Shown here in pieces: positions 1 through 10,338 of a stretch of 10,338 nucleotides of DNA. The stretch's first letter is position 1. Each line of letters starts with the position of its first letter. A program made the position numbers and the translations under genes. The notes under the pieces are model-generated. The model had not been told where the DNA came from. It ran no database searches and saw only the letters and a list, made by a program, of their open reading frames with translations. This DNA comes from Burkholderiales bacterium RIFCSPHIGHO2_12_FULL_61_11 (GTDB lineage: Bacteria; Pseudomonadota; Gammaproteobacteria; Burkholderiales; Burkholderiaceae_C), in contig MERZ01000030.1 in assembly GCA_001770785.1 (NCBI GenBank), positions 3,984 through 14,321 of the forward strand. Reading direction: 5' to 3'.

Positions 1-383
1 TTGGCACGCTGCTGTATCCCGCGCTGCAAGCGGCTGAAAAACTCGGGGCGACGGTCGTCAACATGCGCTGGGCCAAGCCGCTGGATATTGAACTGCTGCT
101 GAAGGTGGCGGCTGCGCACGACGCACTGGTCACGCTGGAAGAGGGCGCCATCATGGGCGGCGCAGGCAGTGCGGTCAGCGAAGCGCTGCAGGCGGCCGGT
201 GTGGTCAAGCCGCTGCTGCAACTGGGCCTGAGAGACGAGTTCATCGAGCATGGCGATCCGGCCAGGTTGCTGGCGCTGCAGGGACTCGACGCAGCGGGAA
301 TTGAAGCGTCCATCACCGCGCGCTTCGGGGTATTGCGGCCGACCGACAAGCCTGCCAAGGTCACGCTGAAATCAGTGGCGTGA
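1..383 (+). CDS. dxs: 1-deoxy-D-xylulose-5-phosphate synthase, C-terminal fragment
   Basis: The gene enters from the left edge; the first complete codon is at position 3, and it ends with TGA at 381-383. Dxs is a cytoplasmic thiamine-diphosphate enzyme that condenses pyruvate with glyceraldehyde 3-phosphate, the first step of the MEP isoprenoid pathway. About 126 residues are visible, all from the transketolase C-terminal domain. Recognisable stretches are the RWAKPLD segment, then [21 protein letters not shown], matching the E. coli [18 protein letters not shown] region, and near the end [12 protein letters not shown], matching the conserved end of Dxs. The ThDP-binding and catalytic domains lie outside the window. 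The C-terminus runs about 15 residues past the E. coli end, which is usual in betaproteobacteria. No terminator is seen after the stop. The family call is firm; the gene looks intact as far as it is visible. Confidence 0.95.
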
Positions 384-598: not shown

Positions 599-1678
599 AT
601 GGATCGTCGATCACTAATAAAAAACGCTGGCATCGCCGGGGTACTCGCTGCTGGCATCGCGCCCGCTGTGCATGCGCAGGCCGCTATTCGCTGGCGCCTG
701 GCATCGAGCTTTCCCAAGTCGCTGGATACCCTCATCGGAGGTGCCGAAACCTTTGCCAGGAAGGTCAGCGACATGAGCGGCGGGAAGTTCGTGATTTCCA
801 TTCATGCGGCAGGTGAACTGATGCCAGCGTTCGGCGTGGTCGATGGCGTGCAGAACGGCACGGTCGAGGTCGCTCAAACCGCGCCTTACTACTTTTTCGG
901 CAAGGACGAAACCTTTGCACTGGGCTGCGCCATCCCGTTCGGCCTGAACAGCCGCCAGATGACGGCCTGGATGTACGCCGGCAATGGCCTCAAACTGATG
1001 CGTGAGTTCTACGCCAAGTACAACATCGTGAGCTTCCCGGGCGGCAATACCGGGGCGCAAATGGGCGGCTGGTACCGCAAGCAGATCAAGAGCGTGGCCG
1101 ACTTGAAGGGCCTGAAATTCCGCGTCGGCGGTTTTGCCGGCAAGGTGCTTGAGCGCATGGGCGTCGTGCCGCAGAACATTCCGGGTGGCGAGATTTACCA
1201 GGCGCTTGAAAAAGGCACGCTGGATGCCGTGGAGTTCGTGGGTCCCTACGACGACCAGAAACTTGGGTTCAACAAGGTCGCACCTTACTACTACTACCCC
1301 GCCTGGTGGGAAGGCGGCGCGCAACTGGACCTCATGGTCAACGCCAAGGCCTACGAGGGACTGTCGGCCGAGAACAAGGCCATCGTCGAGGCCGCCGCTG
1401 CTTACGCGCACGTTGAAGTGCAGGCCAAGTACGATGCCAAGAACCCCACCGCCCTCAAGCAACTGGTCGGTAGCGGGACCAAGGTTTTGCCTTTTCCCAA
1501 GGATGTGATGGACCGGGCGTTCAAGGAATCGATGGCGCTGTATGCCGAGATCAGTGCCCGGAACCCCAACTGGAAAAAAGTTTACGACGACTACTCGGCG
1601 TTCCGCAAGGACCAGAACCTGTGGTTCCGCTTCACCGAAGCCCGCTTCGACGGCTTCATGCAAGCCCAAAAACTTTAA
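599..1678 (+). CDS. dctP: TRAP transporter substrate-binding protein, TakP/DctP family (copy 1)
   Basis: A 359-residue periplasmic binding protein of a tripartite ATP-independent transporter, which hands an organic acid to the DctQM permease in a Na+-driven process. Residues 1-26 form a signal peptide: the DRRSLIK motif fits the twin-arginine pattern, a short hydrophobic stretch follows, and AVHA gives a cleavage site after A26. The mature part shows DctP-fold landmarks: GELMPAFGVVDGVQ (72-85), a QMGGWYRK motif (154-161), the conserved ligand arginine R175, and VGPYDDQKLGF (214-224). It closely resembles Rhodobacter TakP, which binds Na+-pyruvate and other 2-oxoacids; with a two-residue offset, Q154, R175, E212 and F213 align with TakP ligand-site positions as I remember them. 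The odd point is F213, where copy 2, like TakP, has Trp. It is not in an operon with its permease, which lies convergently beyond copy 2. Family sure; ligand is inference. Confidence 0.93.
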   Translation: MDRRSLIKNAGIAGVLAAGIAPAVHAQAAIRWRLASSFPKSLDTLIGGAETFARKVSDMSGGKFVISIHAAGELMPAFGVVDGVQNGTVEVAQTAPYYFFGKDETFALGCAIPFGLNSRQMTAWMYAGNGLKLMREFYAKYNIVSFPGGNTGAQMGGWYRKQIKSVADLKGLKFRVGGFAGKVLERMGVVPQNIPGGEIYQALEKGTLDAVEFVGPYDDQKLGFNKVAPYYYYPAWWEGGAQLDLMVNAKAYEGLSAENKAIVEAAAAYAHVEVQAKYDAKNPTALKQLVGSGTKVLPFPKDVMDRAFKESMALYAEISARNPNWKKVYDDYSAFRKDQNLWFRFTEARFDGFMQAQKL

Positions 1679-1699
1679 GCCTCCAGTCGCTTCGCTCCC

Positions 1700-1732
1700 G
1701 TAAAAAAGCCCCGCCATGCGGGGCTTTTTTAC
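1700..1732. terminator. Intrinsic terminator after dctP copy 1
   Basis: A perfect 15-bp stem (1700-1714 with 1718-1732) with a three-base loop CAT; the stem contains GCCCCGC/GCGGGGC flanked by A6 and T6. It starts 21 bases after the stop. The A and T runs make it able to act in both directions, though only the upstream + strand gene is near. The same stem recurs after copy 2. Confidence 0.93.
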
Positions 1733-1905
1733 GGACTCACCGCTGACCTGCAGATTCACGGCGGCGAGTGTCGAGCCTTCCATCAGTGCCTGCTTTAATG
1801 AACAAGACAGCCCTCGGCATTCCGGGTTGCGTGAGGTGTGCCGGCGGCAGCTTTACTGACAATAGGCTGAACGCCAACAGTTTCGGCTGCCAATGCATGG
1901 CGGTC

Positions 1906-1920
1906 AAGGGAAAACCCCTT
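1906..1920. promoter_or_regulatory. Small inverted repeat AAGGG-N5-CCCTT upstream of dctP2
   Basis: Arms at 1906-1910 and 1916-1920 with centre AAAAC, about 110 bases upstream of the dctP2 start. It is short and could be chance; a regulator site is possible. The rest of 1733-2028 holds no gene that I can support. Confidence 0.2.
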
Positions 1921-1956
1921 AAAAGTTAACCCCGGGAGTACCTAGAATCATGCTTG

Positions 1957-1989
1957 ATCTGAAACGTCACAAGTTGTCTCAAATCAGAT
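1957..1989. promoter_or_regulatory. Nested dyad upstream of dctP2 (candidate operator)
   Basis: Two inverted repeats share the same centre at 1973: an outer pair ATCTGA (1957-1962) / TCAGAT (1984-1989), and an inner palindrome ACAAgTTGT (1969-1977). The left half reads ATCTGAAAC, close to the ATCTGGAAC half-sites in front of dctQ. Its position 40 bases upstream of the start suits an operator at or next to a promoter. Regulator unknown; function is inference. Confidence 0.35.
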
Positions 1990-2003
1990 TTTCAGCTTAT
2001 TTT
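1974..2003 (+). promoter_or_regulatory. Weak candidate promoter for dctP2
   Basis: TTGTCT (1974-1979) and TATTTT (1998-2003) are separated by 18 bases; each matches the sigma-70 hexamers at four of six positions. It overlaps the dyad at 1957-1989, which would fit repression. The gene needs its own promoter because a strong terminator separates it from copy 1, but this particular pair is a guess. Confidence 0.25.
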
Positions 2004-2028
2004 TTGACCCCTTAAAGGAGCTAATTAC

Positions 2029-3108
2029 ATGGACCGTCGTTCACTCATCAAAAATGCCGGCATCGCCGGAGTGTTGGCGGCTGGCGTGGCACCGGCCGTG
2101 CATGCGCAGGCTGCCATTCGCTGGCGCATGGCCTCCAGCTTTCCGAAGTCGCTTGACACCATTTTTGGCGCGGCGGACAGCTTCGCCAAGAAAGTCGGCG
2201 AAATGTCCGGCGGCAAGTTTTCCATCACGGTGCACGCTGCTGGCGAACTGATGCCCGCGTTCGGTGTGGTCGATGGGGTACAGAGCGCCGCGGTTGAGAT
2301 GTGCCACACGGCGCCCTACTACTTTTTTGGGAAGGACGAAACCTTTGCCTTGGGTTGTGCCATTCCCTTCGGCCTGAACAGCCGCCAGATGACGGCCTGG
2401 ATGTACGAAGGCAATGGTCTGAAGCTGATGCGCGAGTTTTACGCCAAGTACAACATCGTGAACTTCCCTGCCGGCAACACCGGCGCGCAAATGGGCGGCT
2501 GGTACCGCAAGCAGATCAAGAGCGTGGCCGACATGAAGGGCCTGAAGATGCGCATTGGCGGCTTCGGCGGCAAGGTGCTTGAGCGCATGGGCTCGGTGCC
2601 CCAGAACATTCCGGGCGGCGAGATTTACCAGTCGCTCGAAAAAGGCACGATTGACGCGGTCGAGTGGGTCGGTCCTTACGACGATCAGAAGCTGGGCTTC
2701 AACAAGGTTGCACCGTTTTACTACTACCCCGGCTGGTGGGAAGGCGGCCCGCAGCTCGATTTCTTTATCAACGACAAGGCGTATGCAGGTCTGTCGGCCG
2801 AGAACAAGGCCATGATCGAGGTCGCCGCTTCTCACGCGCACGTTGAAATGCAGGCCAAGTACGACGCCAAGAACCCCAATGCCCTCAAGCAACTGGTGGG
2901 TAGCGGGACCAAGGTTCTGCCGTTCCCGAATGACGTGCTGAATCTCGCGTTCAAGGAATCGATGGCGCTGTATTCGGACATCAGTGCCAAGAACCCCAAC
3001 TGGAAAAAAGTGTACGACGACTACTCAGCCTTCCGCAAGGACCAGAACCTGTGGTTCCGCTTCACCGAAGCGCGCTTCGACAGCTTCATGCAAGCGCAGA
3101 AACTGTAA
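2029..3108 (+). CDS. dctP: TRAP transporter substrate-binding protein, TakP/DctP family (copy 2)
   Basis: A second 359-residue periplasmic binding protein, gap-free against copy 1; by hand I count about 53 differences (about 85% identity). AAAGGAG at 2014-2020 lies 8 bases before the ATG. The Tat-like signal peptide is almost the same (DRRSLIK, cleavage after A26). Ligand-site landmarks are Q154, R175, E212 and W213; the EWVGPYDD motif is as I remember it from Rhodobacter TakP, a Na+-dependent 2-oxoacid binder, so this copy looks like the ancestral-type receptor. Differences from copy 1 cluster at residues 86-93 and 245-249 as well as at 213, and are scarce in the last 40 residues. It faces dctQM convergently across a two-way terminator. 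It probably supplies the same permease as copy 1. Family sure; 2-oxoacid ligand likely but unproven. Confidence 0.94.
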   Translation: MDRRSLIKNAGIAGVLAAGVAPAVHAQAAIRWRMASSFPKSLDTIFGAADSFAKKVGEMSGGKFSITVHAAGELMPAFGVVDGVQSAAVEMCHTAPYYFFGKDETFALGCAIPFGLNSRQMTAWMYEGNGLKLMREFYAKYNIVNFPAGNTGAQMGGWYRKQIKSVADMKGLKMRIGGFGGKVLERMGSVPQNIPGGEIYQSLEKGTIDAVEWVGPYDDQKLGFNKVAPFYYYPGWWEGGPQLDFFINDKAYAGLSAENKAMIEVAASHAHVEMQAKYDAKNPNALKQLVGSGTKVLPFPNDVLNLAFKESMALYSDISAKNPNWKKVYDDYSAFRKDQNLWFRFTEARFDSFMQAQKL

Positions 3109-3129
3109 GCCCCGGGTAGCTTCTCCTCT

Positions 3130-3162
3130 GTAAAAAAGCCCCGCATGGCGGGGCTTTTTTAC
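3130..3162. terminator. Bidirectional intrinsic terminator between dctP2 and dctM
   Basis: A perfect 15-bp stem (3130-3144 with 3148-3162), identical to the one after copy 1 but with loop ATG instead of CAT. It begins 21 bases after the dctP2 stop and 48 bases beyond the dctM stop on the other strand. A6/T6 tracts on both sides mean it can stop transcription from both convergent units. Confidence 0.93.
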
Positions 3163-3209
3163 GGGAGCCGCTGCGAACCTGCGGGGAACGCAGCGGCATT
3201 TTCAGAAAG

Positions 3210-4976
3210 CTATTTCTTCTGGTTTTTTTCCATCGACTCCTGCATGGCTTTCATGGGGTCATCGCTGGCTTCACCCGCAGGGGCTGGACTCCCGGCCTCC
3301 TCCAATGCCGCTTCTGCCTTGTTTGCCGCCTTGAAGTCTGCTTCCATCTGCATCTGAACCGCTTTGAGGTCGATCTTCTCCGTCACGTCCAGTCCGCTCG
3401 AAACGATGCCCGGGAAGAAGATGATCAGGCCCACCATCACGACCTGGATCAACACAAAAGGTATGGCACCCCAGTAGATTTGCATGGTGGTGACCGGCTG
3501 TATCGTCTTGCCGGTGATGCGGTCGGTGTATTCCTTTATCGGGGCCACGCTGCGCAGGTAGAACAGGGCAAAGCCAAACGGCGGGTGCATGAACGAGGTC
3601 TGCATGTTCACGGCCAGCAGCACGCCAAACCAGATCAGGTCAATCCCCAGCTTGTCGGCCACGGGCGCCAGCAGCGGCACCACAATGAAGGACAGCTCGA
3701 AGAAGTCAAGGAAGAACGCCAGAAAGAAGATCAGCAGGTTGACGACGATCAGGAAGCCGACCTGGCCGCCGGGCAGTCCGCTGAGCAGATGCTCGACCCA
3801 TTTCTGGCCATCGACGCCCTGGAACACCAGGCTGAAGATGGTTGAGCCGATCAGGATGAACACCACAAAGCATGCCAGCTTGGTGGTGCTGTTCAGCGCC
3901 TGCTTGAGCAGCTTGAAGTTCAGCCGCCCGCGCGCCGTGGCCAGGATGATGGCGCCCATGGCGCCCATGGCGCCGCCCTCGGTCGGGGTGGCGATGCCCA
4001 GGAAGATGGTGCCGAGCACCAGAAAGATCAGCAGCAGTGGCGGAATCAGCACGAAAGTCACGCGCTCGGCCATGCGCGACAGCAGGCCCAGACGGGTGAA
4101 CTTGTTGAAAAGCGCAATGACGAGGGCCAGTATGACACCGGCGGCCATCGATACGACGATGGTTTCGTCCTTGGCCACACTCATCACCGTTTCGCCCTTG
4201 AACCAGCTGGCAACGGCGGCGTAATGCTCACCAAAGTAGATGGCAATGCCCGTGCAGAGAACGGTCAGCAGCAGCAGCGACAGCAGGCCGCTCTTGCCAC
4301 TGTCTTCGCGGATGGTGCGCGCCTCGAGCGGCATGGCGGGAACCCATTTCGGGCGGAAGATCGCCAGCAAGATGACGTAGCCCGCATACATGCCCATGAG
4401 CGCGAAGCCGGGAATGAAGGCGCCCTTGTACATGTCGCCTACGCTGCGGCCCAGTTGGTCGGCCAGAATGATCAGCACCAGCGACGGCGGGATGATTTGC
4501 GCCAGCGTGCCTGAAGCCGCAATGGCACCGGCAGCCACGCGGCGGTCATAGCCATAGCGGAGCATGATTGGCAGTGAAATCAGGCCCATGGAGATGACTG
4601 AAGCCGCCACCACGCCGGTGGTGGCTGCCAGCAGGGCGCCGACGAAAACGGCCGCCAGCGCCAGGCCGCCACGCACCGGGCCAAACAGCTGGCCGATGGT
4701 CTCCAGCAGGTCTTCGGCCATGCCACTACGTTCAAGGATCAAGCCCATCAAGGTGAAAAAGGGGACGGCCAGCAGCGTGTCGTTTTGCATGATCCCATAC
4801 AGGCGCAACGGCAGCGCTTGCAGCAGTGCTTCTGGCAGCATGCCCAGTTCAATGCCAATGAAACCGAAAAACAGTCCGCAGGCACCGAGGCTGAAGGCCA
4901 CGGGAAAACCCATCAGCAGAAAAATGATCAGCCCCGCGAACATGATCGGGGCCATATTTTGCGTAATAAATTCCAT
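3210..4976 (-). CDS. dctM: TRAP transporter large permease subunit (DctM family), long form
   Basis: A 588-residue inner-membrane protein, the substrate-translocating subunit of a TRAP transporter. Hydrophobic segments run from about residue 9 to 522. Family landmarks are NDTLLAVPFFTLMG (65-78), SGTLAQIIPPSLVLII (155-170), ATPTEGGAMGAMGA (329-342) and MHPPFGFALFYL (463-474). Usual DctM proteins are about 430 residues; this one carries extra hydrophobic segments in the middle (about 230-290) and a charged C-terminal tail (530-588) rich in Ala, Glu, Lys and Met, which should be cytoplasmic and partly helical. Long forms of this kind are, as I recall, common with TakP-type receptors. It starts 13 bases after the dctQ stop with only a weak GGGAC ribosome site, so translation is probably coupled to dctQ. 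The receptors lie convergently downstream. A nine-base tandem repeat around 3952-3975 encodes the GAM repeats. Confidence 0.93.
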   Translation of the reverse strand: MEFITQNMAPIMFAGLIIFLLMGFPVAFSLGACGLFFGFIGIELGMLPEALLQALPLRLYGIMQNDTLLAVPFFTLMGLILERSGMAEDLLETIGQLFGPVRGGLALAAVFVGALLAATTGVVAASVISMGLISLPIMLRYGYDRRVAAGAIAASGTLAQIIPPSLVLIILADQLGRSVGDMYKGAFIPGFALMGMYAGYVILLAIFRPKWVPAMPLEARTIREDSGKSGLLSLLLLTVLCTGIAIYFGEHYAAVASWFKGETVMSVAKDETIVVSMAAGVILALVIALFNKFTRLGLLSRMAERVTFVLIPPLLLIFLVLGTIFLGIATPTEGGAMGAMGAIILATARGRLNFKLLKQALNSTTKLACFVVFILIGSTIFSLVFQGVDGQKWVEHLLSGLPGGQVGFLIVVNLLIFFLAFFLDFFELSFIVVPLLAPVADKLGIDLIWFGVLLAVNMQTSFMHPPFGFALFYLRSVAPIKEYTDRITGKTIQPVTTMQIYWGAIPFVLIQVVMVGLIIFFPGIVSSGLDVTEKIDLKAVQMQMEADFKAANKAEAALEEAGSPAPAGEASDDPMKAMQESMEKNQKK

Positions 4977-4989
4977 GAATGCGTCCCGA

Positions 4990-5589
4990 TCAGGCGGCTT
5001 TGTTTTTGGATTCGGCGAGGCGTATCAGGTCTTCCGCCAGCTCTTCTTCGGCAGTTTTTTCAGCCTTCTTGAGCGTCGGGTCCTCAATCAGGCCCTGCAG
5101 GAAGGCGACGCGCTTGATCAGCTCGGACCAGCCCTGCAGCAGCAGCAGGAAAAAGCCCAGCGGAATCATGGCGTACACCGGCCAGCGGATCAGGCCGCCC
5201 GCGCTGCCTGAAACCTCGCCGGAGCGATAGCCTTGCAGGAAAAACGGAATACCGTAATACAGGATCGCCAAGCACATCGGCGTCAAAAAAGCAGCGAACC
5301 CAAAAATGTCAATCCAGATCTGCGCGCGCTTGGACAGGTGGCTGGTGACCACGTCAATTTTCACGTGTTCACCATTGAGCAGGGTGTAGCCGGCGGCAAT
5401 CAGGAAAGATGCGGCGAACAAATACCACTGGATTTCAAGGAACGCATTCGAGCTCATGTTGAATGCTTTGCGGACGACCGCATTGATGGCGCTGATGACC
5501 GTCGAGGCCAGGATGAGCCAGATGATGTATTTGCCAAGCTGGGCGTTCAACCAGTCCACGGCATTTGAAAATTTCAACAAGGTGCGCAA
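4990..5589 (-). CDS. dctQ: TRAP transporter small permease subunit (DctQ family)
   Basis: A 199-residue inner-membrane protein with four predicted membrane segments (about 20-40, 52-72, 92-113 and 136-156). DctQ forms the membrane complex with DctM and helps dock the binding protein. The EIQWYLFAASFLIAAGYTLL stretch (52-71) followed by the GEHVKIDV motif (73-80) is the DctQ signature. The last 40 residues are charged and probably helical in the cytoplasm. The start is TTG at 5587-5589, chosen because no ATG or GTG lies nearby in frame and GGAG sits 7 bases upstream. It is the first gene of a dctQ-dctM operon; there is no dctP in the unit. A large inverted repeat lies just upstream of the start and may control the operon. 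Confidence 0.92.
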   Translation of the reverse strand: MRTLLKFSNAVDWLNAQLGKYIIWLILASTVISAINAVVRKAFNMSSNAFLEIQWYLFAASFLIAAGYTLLNGEHVKIDVVTSHLSKRAQIWIDIFGFAAFLTPMCLAILYYGIPFFLQGYRSGEVSGSAGGLIRWPVYAMIPLGFFLLLLQGWSELIKRVAFLQGLIEDPTLKKAEKTAEEELAEDLIRLAESKNKAA

Positions 5590-5945: not shown

Positions 5946-7031
5946 TTACATCAATTCCCCGATGGCAACCGGAATGCGTCTTCTGCCAAAGTTTCCGGCT
6001 CGCGCATCAAAGCGCCCTGCAATGGCCGTACCGCAATCCGGACAGTTCCCCTCGCTGGTCAGCCGGTATTGCTTGATCTGGTACCAGTCGCGCACGATCA
6101 GCGGGGCCTGGCAGCCGGGGCAAAACGTTGTATCGCCTTCCTGATTGTGCACATTGCCGGTGTAGACATACTGCAAACCTTCGCGCAGGGCGATAGCTCG
6201 GGCGCGTACCAATGTGCCAGCCGGCGTGGCTGGAATATCGGGCATTTTGTAATCCGGATGGAACGCCGAAAAGTGCAGTGGCACGTCAACACCGAGTTCC
6301 TTTCTGATCCATTGGCACATCGCGGTGATTTCCTCATTCGAGTCGTTTTGACCGGGAATGAGCAAGGTGGTAATTTCAAACCATACGTTTGTTTCATGCT
6401 TGAGATAGCGCAAGGTATCGAGCACCGGCTGCAGCTGCGAGCCTGTCAGCTTGAAGTAGAAAGCGTCGGTAAATGCCTTCAGGTCAACATTGGCGGCGTC
6501 CATTTTTGCGTAAAAATCGCGCCTGGCCTGGTCATGCATATAGCCTGCGGTGACGGCCACGGCCTTGATGCCACGGGCATGGCAGGCATCTGCCACATCC
6601 ATTGCATATTCAGCGAAGATGACCGGATCGTTGTAGGTAAACGCCACGCTCTTGCAGCCATGTTGTTCCGCTGCGGCGGCAATGGCCGTTGGCGACGCCT
6701 GATCCATCAACCGATCCATGTCCCTGGACTTGCTGATATCCCAGTTCTGGCAGAACTTGCACGCCAGATTGCAACCCGCCGTGCCAAAAGACAGCACGCT
6801 GCTGCCCGGGTAAAAGTGATTGAGCGGTTTCTTTTCGATCGGGTCAATGCAGAAACCCGATGAGCGTCCATACGTGGTGAGGATCATCTGGTCGCCCTCG
6901 CGCATGCGCACAAAACAGGCGCCGCGCTGTCCTTCGTGCAACTTGCAGTCACGCGGACACAGGTCACACTGCATGCGCCCGTCATCCAGCATGTGCCAAT
7001 AGCGGGCCTTGTAAGCAGAATTTTCAATCAT
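5946..7031 (-). CDS. amrS: AmmeMemoRadiSam system radical SAM enzyme (AmrS)
   Basis: A 361-residue radical S-adenosylmethionine enzyme of the family formerly annotated as pyruvate formate-lyase activating-like. The [4Fe-4S] cluster motif is C87-x3-C91-x2-C94 in CNLACKFC, followed by FCQNWDISK. An N-terminal Cys group CDLCPRDC (C22, C25, C29) plus C39 is typical of the family, and two C-x2-C pairs near the end (C304/C307 and C330/C333) look like a zinc ribbon. Other landmarks are FTYNDPVIFAEY (131-142), VDLKAF (182-187) and LIPGQND (224-230). The start ATG at 7031 overlaps the amrA stop as ATGA and has GGGAGA nine bases upstream; an earlier start at 7064 is less likely. Last gene of the amrB-amrA-amrS unit. 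AmrS probably cuts SAM to 5'-deoxyadenosyl radical; its substrate is unknown to me. Confidence 0.93.
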   Translation of the reverse strand: MIENSAYKARYWHMLDDGRMQCDLCPRDCKLHEGQRGACFVRMREGDQMILTTYGRSSGFCIDPIEKKPLNHFYPGSSVLSFGTAGCNLACKFCQNWDISKSRDMDRLMDQASPTAIAAAAEQHGCKSVAFTYNDPVIFAEYAMDVADACHARGIKAVAVTAGYMHDQARRDFYAKMDAANVDLKAFTDAFYFKLTGSQLQPVLDTLRYLKHETNVWFEITTLLIPGQNDSNEEITAMCQWIRKELGVDVPLHFSAFHPDYKMPDIPATPAGTLVRARAIALREGLQYVYTGNVHNQEGDTTFCPGCQAPLIVRDWYQIKQYRLTSEGNCPDCGTAIAGRFDARAGNFGRRRIPVAIGELM

Positions 7032-7606
7032 GCTTGAAATCTCCCAATATCCACTTCTTTCCATTTGCTCACCGTGTAGCGGGAGAGCTTGACTTGCTCA
7101 TCCCAAAAGTCCGGACGCAGGCCAGCCTTGTGCTTCAGGTGCGCCATGAACAGCGTCGCATCAGGCAACTGCTCCCACACTTGCGGCAGAAAGGTGCTGC
7201 GGCAACGGCCAAACTCGAACACCACGCCATCAATGCCCGGCTGCAATTGCGCCAATGCATCATGCTCATCAGAGAACGGCAATGGCTGCATGGCTGACAA
7301 CAGCGAAATCTCGATGTCCGTAGCGTCCAGCTCAGCCTCTGTCAGCGGTGAAAACCGACGGTCGCGGAACGCCGCCGCATGGGCGTTGGACTTGACATCC
7401 AGCAACAGGGAGCGATGCGCTTGCAGCGTGCCGATGCAGCCTCGCAGTTCTCGATGCTGGGTCAATGTGACAAAGCTTGCGCCTTTCTCCTGCAACCATG
7501 GCGAATTCTCGGGCACACGACCCCTCGACCTGCCCAATGCGTCCGAAATGGCAGCACGGGCGATTGAAAGCAACACTTCGCCGGTGTTTTTACGCGTTCC
7601 GGGCAT
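7028..7606 (-). CDS. amrA: AmmeMemoRadiSam system protein A (AMMECR1 domain)
   Basis: A 192-residue cytoplasmic protein consisting of one AMMECR1 domain, the bacterial relative of the human AMMECR1 protein. The hallmark LRGCIGTL is at residues 54-61; further family segments are AAFRDRRFSPLTEAEL (78-93), STFLPQVWEQLP (137-148) and FWDEQVKLSRYTVSKW (167-182). The biochemical role is not established; the invariant LRGCIG loop suggests a catalytic or binding site. The start at 7606 has GAGGAAA eight bases upstream and overlaps the end of amrB by 17 bases. A longer frame from 7741 runs far into amrB, and its extra 45 residues are unlike the family. It overlaps amrS by four bases (ATGA), so the three proteins are probably made together. 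Confidence 0.92.
   Translation of the reverse strand: MPGTRKNTGEVLLSIARAAISDALGRSRGRVPENSPWLQEKGASFVTLTQHRELRGCIGTLQAHRSLLLDVKSNAHAAAFRDRRFSPLTEAELDATDIEISLLSAMQPLPFSDEHDALAQLQPGIDGVVFEFGRCRSTFLPQVWEQLPDATLFMAHLKHKAGLRPDFWDEQVKLSRYTVSKWKEVDIGRFQA
7040..7045 (-). promoter_or_regulatory. Ribosome binding site deciding the amrS start
   Basis: GGGAGA on the minus strand, with its GGAG core nine bases before ATG 7031. Together with the ATGA overlap it supports 7031 over the upstream ATG at 7064. Confidence 0.75.
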
Positions 7607-8417
7607 CGCTTGTTTCCTCGGAAAAAATGAACGAGGCATAGCCAACCACACGGCTCTTGTCGCCAGCGGTATCTCCTGAATTGCACAAATCCAGCAGCCT
7701 GGGGCGCAGCTGATGCTTTCTGGCCGCAAAGACCAGGCCATTGATCGGCGTACCGCCGCAGGCTTGGCTGTGCGTCAAGGACGATTTCATGCCGAGAATG
7801 TGTTGCACGGTTTGCTGGTCCACCGCGCACGCCAAGGCATAAGGCAGGAAATGGGAAAGATCAGAGCTCACCACGATGACGGTTTCCGGCCCGCCCCAGA
7901 GCACATCGAGCACCTGCGCCACTTCTGCCGGGGTCGCGTCGCCGACGGCCAGCGGCACCAGCTTGAAATCATCCAGCACCGATTGCATGAAAGGCAACTG
8001 CACTTCCAGCGAATGCTCCTGGGCATGGGCAGCGGGACTCACCACAACCTGCTTCATCCCGGCCAGTAAGGCAATGGCAGCCTTATCCAGCTCAATGTTC
8101 CCCAACGGTGTTGCAAAAACATCGATACCTGGCAGCGCCAACCCCCGTACCGGCACACGATGCACCGGCCCCAGCAAGACCATGCGCTTGATGGTCTTGC
8201 GTCCGGCCGCAAGCCGGGCATAAGCCATCGCCGCGGTCTGACCGGAGTAGACATAGCCCGCGTGCGGAACCACCATCGCCTTGGGCAGTATTTGTTCAAT
8301 GTCCTGGTCAATATCGTGTAGCGCCGCGGCCAGCAGCGTTTCAATATCATCGGCCAATATCTGTCTGTTGCCCGGATAAAAGGCACCAGCCACAGCGGGA
8401 TGACGGATCGTAGGCAT
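7590..8417 (-). CDS. amrB: AmmeMemoRadiSam system protein B (Memo-like)
   Basis: A 275-residue cytoplasmic protein of the Memo family, whose fold is shared with LigB-type nonheme-iron dioxygenases. Landmarks in order are RHPAVAGAFYPG (5-16), PHAGYVYSG (51-59), GPVH (83-86), EHSLEVQLPF (134-143), SSDLSHF (184-190) and ACGG (219-222). The residues H52, H86, H189 and C220 appear to match the metal/redox pocket described for human MEMO1 (two His from separate loops, a third His and a Cys), judged from memory of the family. So the pocket looks intact, although no enzymatic reaction is firmly known. The start ATG 8417 has GGAGG five bases upstream. First gene of the operon; its end overlaps amrA by 17 bases. 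No defect seen. Confidence 0.93.
   Translation of the reverse strand: MPTIRHPAVAGAFYPGNRQILADDIETLLAAALHDIDQDIEQILPKAMVVPHAGYVYSGQTAAMAYARLAAGRKTIKRMVLLGPVHRVPVRGLALPGIDVFATPLGNIELDKAAIALLAGMKQVVVSPAAHAQEHSLEVQLPFMQSVLDDFKLVPLAVGDATPAEVAQVLDVLWGGPETVIVVSSDLSHFLPYALACAVDQQTVQHILGMKSSLTHSQACGGTPINGLVFAARKHQLRPRLLDLCNSGDTAGDKSRVVGYASFIFSEETSDARNA
7613..7619 (-). promoter_or_regulatory. Ribosome binding site deciding the amrA start
   Basis: GAGGAAA on the minus strand, inside the last codons of amrB, lies in the right place for ATG 7606. This favours the short 192-residue AmrA over longer in-frame options. Confidence 0.8.
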
Positions 8418-8665: not shown

Positions 8666-9739
8666 TCAGTACACGCTGACGCCGCTCCCCTGGGTCACTT
8701 CGCCGATGACGGCGGCATCACCGAAACCTTGCGCGTGGAAAATCGCCAGCACTTGGGCTGCACTGTCCGCGCTGCAAGACACCAGCAGCCCGCCCGAAGT
8801 CTGCGGATCGCTCAGCAGGGCCTTGTCGACCTCGCCAAACGCGTCGGGCAGGCTGATTTCATGGCCATAACTGGCCCAGTTGCGTCCCGATGCGCCGGTG
8901 ATGCAGCCTTGGCTTCCAAGCTCGCGTACACCGGCGATCAATGGCGTACGGGTCCAGTCGAGCCGGATCTGCACGCCCGCTCCACGCGCCAGTTCCAGGG
9001 CGTGGCCTGCCAGGCCAAAGCCGGTGATGTCGGTCAGTGCATGCACGCCTTCCAGCGCGGCCAGCGCAATGCCGGGCTTGTTGAGTTGCGTGGCGAGGGC
9101 GATCATCCGGGCATAGCCTTCGGCGCTCAACTGGTCCTTTTTGAGCGCCGCCGACAAGATGCCGATGCCCAGGGGCTTGCCCAGCACCAGTACATCACCC
9201 ACCTGGGCACCCGAGTTTTTCTTGACGCGCGAGGGATGCACCAGGCCCATCACGACCAGCCCGTAAATCGGCTCCACGGAATCAATCGTGTGGCCGCCTG
9301 CAACCGGAATGCCGGCATCGCGGCAGACGTCGCGGCCGCCGCGCAAAATTGCGCCTATGGTTTCCAGCGGCAGCACGTTGATGGGCATGCCCACCAGCCC
9401 CAGCGCCATGATGGGCGTGCCGCCCATGGCGTACACGTCGCTGATGGCATTGGTGGCGGCGATGCGGCCAAAGTCATACGGGTCATCGACGATTGGCATG
9501 AAAAAATCGGTGGTGGCAATCAGTGCCTGCTCGTCGTTGAGCTGGTATACCGCGGCGTCGTCAGCGGTTTCAATGCCCACCAGCAGTTGCGGTGGCAACG
9601 GAAAATTGGGCAGGTTGCTGGAGTTTTTCAAAATCTCGCTCAGCACGCCCGGCGCAATCTTGCAGCCACAGCCGCCCCCGTGCGACAGGCTGGTCAATCG
9701 AGGCGTGGCGGGTGTTATTGGGGTCTTAGGGGCATTCAT
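8666..9739 (-). CDS. selD: Selenide, water dikinase (selenophosphate synthase)
   Basis: A 357-residue cytoplasmic enzyme that makes selenophosphate from selenide and ATP, the selenium donor for selenocysteine, selenouridine and, in some bacteria, selenosugar/selenoneine. The active-site loop HGGGCGCKI gives C24 and K27, equivalent to E. coli C17 and K20; the residue is a TGT cysteine, not a UGA selenocysteine. Other landmarks are DDAAVY (60-65), TTDFFMPIVDDPYDFGRIAA (76-95), GGHTIDS (148-154), LTDITGFGLAGH (235-246) and LLSDPQTSGGLL (308-319). Length is close to the E. coli protein (347). ATG 9739 is the only sensible start, with a weak ribosome site. It is divergent from an EgtB-like gene and is followed after 248 bases by the amr operon on the same strand; no selA, selB or selU is in the window. 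By context it may serve selenoneine synthesis (then called SenC). Confidence 0.96.
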   Translation of the reverse strand: MNAPKTPITPATPRLTSLSHGGGCGCKIAPGVLSEILKNSSNLPNFPLPPQLLVGIETADDAAVYQLNDEQALIATTDFFMPIVDDPYDFGRIAATNAISDVYAMGGTPIMALGLVGMPINVLPLETIGAILRGGRDVCRDAGIPVAGGHTIDSVEPIYGLVVMGLVHPSRVKKNSGAQVGDVLVLGKPLGIGILSAALKKDQLSAEGYARMIALATQLNKPGIALAALEGVHALTDITGFGLAGHALELARGAGVQIRLDWTRTPLIAGVRELGSQGCITGASGRNWASYGHEISLPDAFGEVDKALLSDPQTSGGLLVSCSADSAAQVLAIFHAQGFGDAAVIGEVTQGSGVSVY

Positions 9740-9898
9740 CAGGAGGCTTTCAAGGACGTTTCAAAGGCGAATCACCCGCTGGTGCGCGCGGGCTTCATTA
9801 AAGGCAATTTGGACAAGTTTATGACAAGGCTTTGAATGGCATCAGCGCAGTGTCACAATGGCTTGACAGAAATTGTGCCCACCGCAGAACTTCGCAGG
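9740..9898. other. Divergent intergenic region between selD and the EgtB-like gene
   Basis: 159 bases that must hold promoters for both directions. Besides the selD candidate, a perfect TTGACA lies at 9863-9868 for the + strand, but no good -10 follows at the normal spacing; transcription from it would start about at ATG 9899. No strong dyad or riboswitch-like structure was recognised. Confidence 0.5.
9797..9827 (-). promoter_or_regulatory. Weak candidate promoter for selD
   Basis: On the minus strand TTGTCA (9822-9827) and TTTAAT (9797-9802) each match the sigma-70 hexamers at five of six positions, but their spacing is 19 bases, longer than the usual 17. It would give a leader of about 50 bases. 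Confidence 0.25.
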
Positions 9899-10338
9899 AT
9901 GCTCGTTTTGGCTTCAGATTCCCTACCCCGTGCATCACCCGGTTTGCCACCGACCGCCAACCCGGACCTGATTGATTCACCGCTCATGCGCAAGGCGGGC
10001 CGCGAGCTGCTGTCGCTGGCGCTGATGGATGCACGCAATCACACGCTGCGCCTGTTTGGCCAGTACCAAAATGCGCTGGAAGGCGTGAATTTTGCCGTGC
10101 CTCAGCTTGACATCGTCAATCCACCGCTCTGGGAGCTGGGCCATGTGGGCTGGTTTCAGGAATGGTGGATAGGCCGCAACATGCAGCGGGCCCTGGGGTC
10201 GCGCTGTGAGCCCAGTCATGCTCGGCTGGCCTCGATCGAGTCGAACGCCGACCGCTGGTGGGATTCGGGGCTGGTTCCGCATGACACGCGCTGGGCCTTG
10301 GACTTGCCTGGCGTGGAAAACTGCCGCGCCTATTTGCT
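9899..10338 (+). CDS. senA: EgtB-like nonheme-iron enzyme, probable selenoneine synthase SenA, N-terminal part
   Basis: An open frame of at least 146 codons that runs off the right edge. The visible part is a DinB-like domain as in EgtB/OvoA/SenA sulfoxide and selenoxide synthases: LSLALMDARNHTLRLFGQY (38-56) is the first helix, and WELGHVGWFQEWWIGRN (78-94) holds H82, the equivalent of the first iron-binding His of EgtB. The other two His ligands and the FGE-sulfatase-like catalytic domain would lie beyond the window. SenA couples a selenosugar to hercynine using O2, giving selenoneine after breakdown; selD directly opposite points to this rather than to ergothioneine synthesis. ATG 9899 has no clear ribosome site; GTG 9875 or ATG 9986 are possible starts. 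Superfamily confident; the SenA assignment is inference from context and overall look. Confidence 0.65.
   Translation, partial: MLVLASDSLPRASPGLPPTANPDLIDSPLMRKAGRELLSLALMDARNHTLRLFGQYQNALEGVNFAVPQLDIVNPPLWELGHVGWFQEWWIGRNMQRALGSRCEPSHARLASIESNADRWWDSGLVPHDTRWALDLPGVENCRAYL

What the first reader, a model, noticed from the sequence alone, without database searches (positions are those of the whole stretch)
8666..10338. selD divergent from an EgtB-like gene: probable selenoneine locus
Selenophosphate synthase sits head to head with an EgtB/OvoA-type enzyme, and no selA, selB or selenouridine synthase is in view. In the known sen pathway, SenC (a SelD) makes selenophosphate, SenB makes a selenosugar, and SenA joins it to hercynine. 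Here the two genes are divergent rather than in one direction, which could mean separate control of selenium activation and of selenoneine assembly. The SenA call depends on 146 visible residues.
Basis: partly seen in the sequence, partly recalled or inferred. Interest (0 to 1): 0.7.

Follow-up and report, generated by a model that had tools for sequence, protein, structure and literature searches.

The report
Split selenoneine locus with senB relic
A Polaromonas genome fragment carries two genes of the selenoneine pathway back to back, with decayed remains of the third gene between them, and the missing function appears to come from a second cluster elsewhere in the same genome.

Summary
selD (8666-9739, minus) is head to head with the first 146 codons of an EgtB-type gene cut off by the contig end. 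Its best family is SenA, not EgtB; full-length congeneric relatives pass the curated SenA cutoff.

The selenoneine reading is right in kind, but the locus is a decayed one. In most relatives that keep senB here, it lies between selD and senA. Here only a relic of about 110 bp remains (9814-9924). The genome's one senB found is on contig C268, in an egtD-senB-[oxidoreductase/SelD fusion] cluster beside a putative selenate transporter and with no senA found there. The two loci look like complementary halves. Divergence is ordinary: in 39 of 96 loci with senB upstream, senA diverges from it in 39.

Unexpectedly, 19 of 71 relatives' SenA lost the third iron-ligand histidine; 15 of the 19 have no senB, and 3 of the other 4 have a second, intact SenA. 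These proteins stay under purifying selection. The window's visible residues match the intact class (47 of 47).

selA, selB, tRNA-Sec and mnmH also occur in the assembly, so selD is probably shared.

The parts
8666..9739 (-). selD (selenide, water dikinase; senC role), Cys form, N-terminal GGGCGCK
   Evidence: NF002098 537 bits, TIGR00476 431 bits; 75-90% identical to the SelD beside senB-senA in relatives; the Cys/Lys active-site reading of the GGGCGCK motif is recalled
9814..9924 (-). Relic of senB: piece of the 3' end (9814-9834), piece of the 5' third (about 9839-9885), and the start region (about 9905-9924) whose start codon is gone; about 0.8 kb and about 40 bp are deleted relative to L076/L139
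   Evidence: blastn against 32 loci that have senB here: middle piece hits senB in 23 (17 at E < 1e-3, best E 4.5e-12 with L139), start piece in 14, 3' piece in 18, all three in 10; 0 hits at E < 1e-3 in 50 shuffles
9899..10338 (+). senA (selenoneine synthase), 5' part only, cut off by the contig end; start uncertain (ORF open from 9836; 9986 also possible)
   Evidence: NF041186 E 7.8e-32; PDB hits at E <= 1e-3 are SenA only (8k5i, 8ryz); 0 mismatches at 47 positions conserved in iron-site-intact SenA

Best explanation
This is the senA-selD half of a selenoneine pathway in a Polaromonas species. The ancestral local arrangement was selD-senB read one way and senA read the other way. In this lineage senB was deleted in place, leaving a relic in the selD-senA intergenic region. 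The pathway is completed in trans: contig C268 has egtD (makes hercynine), a second type of senB (makes the selenosugar) and an oxidoreductase-SelD fusion (a second selenophosphate source), divergent from a putative selenate ABC transporter; that cluster has no senA found. SelD or the fusion makes selenophosphate, SenB makes the selenosugar, and SenA joins it to hercynine. Shown: gene identities, the relic, the second cluster. Inferred: that the truncated SenA is catalytically intact, that the two loci work together, and that the product is selenoneine.
For: SenA and SelD families; congeners with the same gene pass the SenA cutoff. Relic collinear with senB of relatives, 0 hits in 50 shuffles. 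The only SenB over cutoff in G000 is on C268 (344.7 bits, cutoff 300) with Lys158 and EGGAHV kept (motifs named in PMC10891094, passages). C268 has egtD 369.6 bits, fusion TIGR03169 518.5 and TIGR00476 288.6 bits, TIGR04553 412.9 bits, all over cutoff, and its tetranucleotide profile agrees with C30 (r 0.954). Sister-like genome G008 shows the reverse: senB kept between selD and senA, but egtD followed directly by the fusion. Among 14 loci with senA directly facing selD and no senB between, the 5 whose genome has senB elsewhere keep the iron motif and the 9 whose genome lacks senB have lost it. The window's residues match the intact class, 47 of 47; Ser139 is present in 51 of 52 intact and 0 of 19 broken.
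Against: The HX3HXE iron motif lies beyond the contig end and was not seen. The assembly is a fragmented draft (416 contigs, 93.8% complete, 2.8% contaminated), so linkage, absence and contig membership are not certain; C268 senB has a run of 62 N. selA-selB-tRNA-Sec (C181) and mnmH (C323) also need selenophosphate. The fusion falls below the cutoffs of TIGR04369 (458.5 of 700) and NF002098 (214.6 of 299). Intact-class SenA can also show 1-3 mismatches and broken ones as few as 2, so separates but not by a wide margin. Selenoneine was not measured.
Confidence: 0.82

Rival explanations
1. The window's SenA is already one of the iron-site-lost SenA proteins; senB was deleted because the pathway is gone here, and selD serves only tRNA selenouridine and selenocysteine.
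For: 9 of 14 senA|selD loci without senB between have lost the third histidine. The motif is not visible in the window. selA, selB, tRNA-Sec and mnmH are in the assembly.
Against: All 9 such genomes lack senB, whereas G000 has senB with egtD. The window has 0 of 47 mismatches, the broken class 2 to 13; it has Ser139 and Glu95. The 14 nearest full-length proteins that I checked keep HEDMHGEA.
Confidence: 0.12
2. The truncated gene is a plain EgtB (ergothioneine) or OvsA/OvoA-type enzyme, and the selD neighbour is coincidental.
For: Shared fold family; weak EgtB hit (E 2e-4).
Against: SenA beats EgtB by 90 bits on the fragment; PDB search at E <= 1e-3 returns SenA only; the gene is next to selD and/or senB in many related loci.
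Confidence: 0.03
3. The missing senB between selD and senA is an assembly error of the draft genome.
For: Draft from a fragmented assembly.
Against: The relic has two separate deletions and a lost start codon, not one clean join; 14 other loci show senA facing selD without senB; senB1-type sequence was not found on any other contig.
Confidence: 0.04

Closest known systems
sen cluster (senA-senB-senC) of Variovorax paradoxus DSM 30034
   Same: SenA and SelD/SenC families; egtD and SenB exist in the genome; SenB of C268 keeps the catalytic Lys158 and EGGAHV motif
   Different: Not one cluster: senB is a relic at this locus and the copy found is on another contig beside egtD and an oxidoreductase-SelD fusion.
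Oxidoreductase/SelD (NADH dehydrogenase-like) fusions
   Same: C268 gene has the TIGR03169 N-terminal part and the TIGR00476 SelD part; such fusions are described as the commonest SelD fusions in PMC4561486 (passages)
   Different: Here it sits directly after senB and egtD, which suggests a selenoneine role; that paper links the fusions to Sec use in the passage seen
EgtB / OvoA / OvsA sulfoxide and selenoxide synthases
   Same: Same DinB plus FGE-sulfatase enzyme superfamily
   Different: The fragment does not reach E 1e-3 with solved EgtB, OvsA or OvoA sequences, only with SenA

Membership tests
SenA (NCBIfam NF041186) | Score over the curated cutoff of 420 bits | tested here: inconclusive
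   111 bits over 106 of 382 model positions because the gene is cut by the contig end; of 6 full-length same-genus relatives scanned, 5 (L034, L036, L041, L047, L052) and L050 reach 447.6-516.7 bits, while the more distant L025 scores 366.5
SenA (NCBIfam NF041186) | Three-histidine iron site (His in LGHxxWF, and HX3HXE) | tested here: inconclusive
   First His present in the window; HX3HXE lies beyond the contig end; residues that track it are of the intact type
SenA (NCBIfam NF041186) | senB and egtD in the same genome | tested here: met
   C268: TIGR04348 344.7 bits and egtD 369.6 bits, both over cutoff
SelD / SenC | Curated SelD cutoff | tested here: met
   NF002098 537.4 (cutoff 299), TIGR00476 430.7 (cutoff 125)
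SelD / SenC | Dedicated to selenoneine (no other selenophosphate user) | tested here: not met
   mnmH on C323, selA-selB-tRNA-Sec on C181
EgtB (TIGR03440) | Best family and cutoff 360 bits | tested here: not met
   20.6 bits against 111.1 for SenA on the same fragment
sen gene cluster | senA, senB and selD/senC adjacent | tested here: not met
   senB is only a relic at 9814-9924; the copy found is on C268
sen gene cluster | Selenoneine produced | not testable with these tools
   needs metabolite measurement

The most novel reading that the evidence does not exclude
SenA has repeatedly been turned into an iron-free protein with a different, selected role. When senB is lost, or a second SenA takes over, the SenA at this locus loses the third (sometimes also the first or second) iron histidine, yet stays full length, next to selD or the TRAP transporter, under purifying selection. 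It could be a hercynine- or selenium-metabolite-binding regulator. The window's locus, with senB deleted in place but rescued in trans, would be the stage just before that switch.
Probability: 0.5. Interest if true: 0.65.

Novelty: new variant of a known kind. Interest (0 to 1): 0.48.

Why it matters
It gives a worked case of a selenometabolite pathway held together by two unlinked half-clusters, with the relic of the missing gene still visible. It also gives a genome-level test of the pathway: SenA keeps its iron site where SenB is present and loses it where SenB is gone or another SenA exists. It warns that proteins now named selenoneine synthase SenA in databases (for example in Polaromonas naphthalenivorans) can lack the iron site, so annotation alone overcounts selenoneine producers, and it points to an unknown role for the iron-free SenA proteins.

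Tried and rejected
Plain EgtB and OvsA/OvoA readings were tested and rejected for the fragment. An FGE-like copper site in the SenA C-terminus was considered from memory and dropped; no call tested it. That selD is present for selenoneine alone was rejected. That senB types 1 and 2 exclude each other holds in the 25 genomes (12 with type 1, 7 with type 2, 6 with neither) but not generally: G085 has two SenB over cutoff. A tree-corrected test of iron-site loss against senB absence did not reach significance: 4 supported (6 in all) independent pairs, median sign-test p 0.25, although trait directions agree in 3.2 and oppose in 0.1 pairs on average. The AmmeMemoRadiSam genes were considered as a selenium link and dropped, since they occur at this place only in the window and G008 among the loci mapped (L045 and L131 are the same contig). 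No structure prediction or structure-fold search was run.

The 17 loci left out all have senB beside senA and an intact motif. One search counts 71 of 74 (G000 has no visible motif; G003 and G011 have no SenA found). G062 was counted as having senB from two half matches on two contigs, each below the cutoff. Two motif-intact rows (L143, L149) and one broken row (L146) have stops inside the aligned stretch. dN/dS pairs were picked by hand (14 broken, 13 intact).

Papers: passages only of PMC10702425, PMC10891094, PMC4561486, PMC5322559 and PMC13188914; whole text of PMC9814287; the rest as search listings. I found nothing in print on iron-site-lost SenA or on Polaromonas selenoneine in the held library; the primary sen paper is not held.

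Full report
Identity of the two genes. selD (8666-9739, minus) passes curated SelD cutoffs. The divergent gene is open to the window end, which is the end of contig C30 of a 416-contig draft genome. Its visible part matches the SenA model NF041186 at E = 7.8e-32 and EgtB only at E = 2e-4. Against solved structures at E <= 1e-3 it matches only two distinct SenA sequences. Of the full-length relatives scanned, six Polaromonas proteins score 447.6-516.7 bits (cutoff 420) and the more distant L025 scores 366.5. Named relatives place the genome in or near Polaromonas.

What belongs between them. In the congeners that have the type-1 senB, senB lies upstream of senA and divergent from it, with selD behind it. 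Over 96 mapped loci (14 repeats of the same contig removed), senB is within 4 kb upstream of senA in 39, always divergent; in 14 senA directly faces selD as in the window; in most of the rest it faces dctQ of a TRAP transporter or the neighbourhood is cut short. One second-type cluster (L032) has senA and senB in the same direction, about 3.6 kb apart, so divergence is common rather than universal.

The relic. Between selD and senA the window holds three collinear pieces of senB: near the 3' end, in the 5' third, and at the start, where the start codon is gone. Against 32 loci with senB here, the middle piece hits senB in 23 (17 at E < 1e-3), the start piece in 14 and the 3' piece in 18, all three in 10; 50 shuffles gave no hit at E < 1e-3. 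The single 3' hits are weak on their own (mostly E 0.03-0.3; L076 1.5e-5). Relative to L076 and L139 about 0.8 kb and about 40 bp are missing.

The other half. The only SenB over cutoff in G000 is on contig C268, between egtD and an oxidoreductase-SelD fusion, divergent from a TIGR04553 putative selenate ABC transporter with its ATPase and permeases. It has a run of 62 N inside, keeps EGGAHV and the lysine that I count as Lys158 in the alignment (the motifs are named in PMC10891094). No second SenA or EgtB was found in G000. In genome G027 of another family the same cluster includes senA (L024). In G008, the relative that shares the AmmeMemoRadiSam insertion, senB is kept at the senA locus and is absent between egtD and the fusion. 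Among 25 genomes, 12 have type-1 senB, 7 type-2 and 6 neither, but G085 in the larger set has two SenB.

Iron-site loss. In the alignment of 111 SenA rows the third iron histidine of HX3HXE is replaced in some. Of 71 genomes with a readable motif, 19 are broken: at the third histidine 10 Gln, 8 Arg, 1 Glu. Of the 19, 15 lack SenB over cutoff; of 52 intact, 48 have it (Fisher p 1.2e-8, not corrected for relatedness). The 4 intact exceptions are G064, G065, G078 and G080 (assemblies of 2.0, 1.8, 2.8 and 5.2 Mb). The 4 broken genomes with SenB are G001, G021, G049 and G050; a second SenA (E <= 1e-40, 58 genomes searched) occurs only in G001, G049 and G050, with HEDMH kept and, for G050 and G001, over the SenA cutoff. 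G021 has only a 69-residue SenA-like piece on another contig. The tree needs at least 6 changes, but only 4-6 independent pairs exist and the sign test is not significant. Broken SenA pairs have dN/dS 0.09-0.24 (14 pairs), intact pairs 0.06-0.18 (13 pairs): relaxed somewhat, far from neutral. Of 191 columns conserved at 96% or more in intact SenA, 146 stay 90% or more the same in broken ones. In the 120 best protein hits, 108 have the intact motif, 11 a broken one, 1 was not resolved.

Prediction for the window. The motif lies about 40 residues past the contig end. At 47 visible positions conserved in the intact class the window has no mismatch; intact rows have 0-3, broken rows 2-13. Ser139 is in 51 of 52 intact and 0 of 19 broken rows, and is present. 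Of the 14 loci with the window's architecture, the 5 with senB elsewhere are intact and the 9 without are broken. G000 has senB elsewhere, so an intact SenA is the better bet.

Other selenium users. mnmH is in 24 of 25 genus genomes including G000. selA is over cutoff in 1 of 25, G000 itself, on C181 with selB (400.5 bits, cutoff 242) and tRNA-Sec. C181's tetranucleotide profile agrees less with C30 (r 0.88) than C268 or other Polaromonas loci do (0.95-0.96), so it may be transferred or foreign DNA.

Verdict. A real selenoneine locus, of a known kind, in an unusual decayed and trans-completed form. The more surprising result is the repeated loss of the SenA iron site under retained selection.

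Noticed in passing
L036 9927-11243 (G024); L025, L026, L027, L047, L049, L092, L101, L106, L119, L125, L127, L137, L145-L148, L153, L154: SenA-like proteins that lack the third iron-ligand histidine yet are under purifying selection; some carry the database name selenoneine synthase SenA.
   Followed up: yes
window 5946-8417 (-): Complete AmmeMemoRadiSam set (radical SAM, AMMECR1, Memo) inserted between dctQ and selD; among the loci mapped only the window and G008 (L045) have it here.
   Followed up: partly
window 599-5589: Tandem DctP genes and a DctQM TRAP transporter keep a place beside selD/senA in many related loci; its substrate and any link to selenium are unknown.
   Followed up: no
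L069 2402-6153 (G000 contig C181): tRNA-Sec, selA and selB cluster; selA found in only this 1 of 25 genus genomes, with an odd tetranucleotide profile, so transferred or contaminating.
   Followed up: partly
L025, L026, L027 (G013, G007, G022): SenA-like gene next to dxs with both the first and third iron histidines replaced, in genomes where no senB over cutoff and no egtD were found.
   Followed up: partly
L062 2665-10575 (G000 contig C268): egtD, senB and an oxidoreductase-SelD fusion divergent from a putative selenate ABC transporter: a candidate second selenoneine cluster without senA.
   Followed up: yes
window 3-383 (+): C-terminal end of a dxs (1-deoxyxylulose-5-phosphate synthase) gene, a conserved outer neighbour of this locus in relatives.
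   Followed up: no
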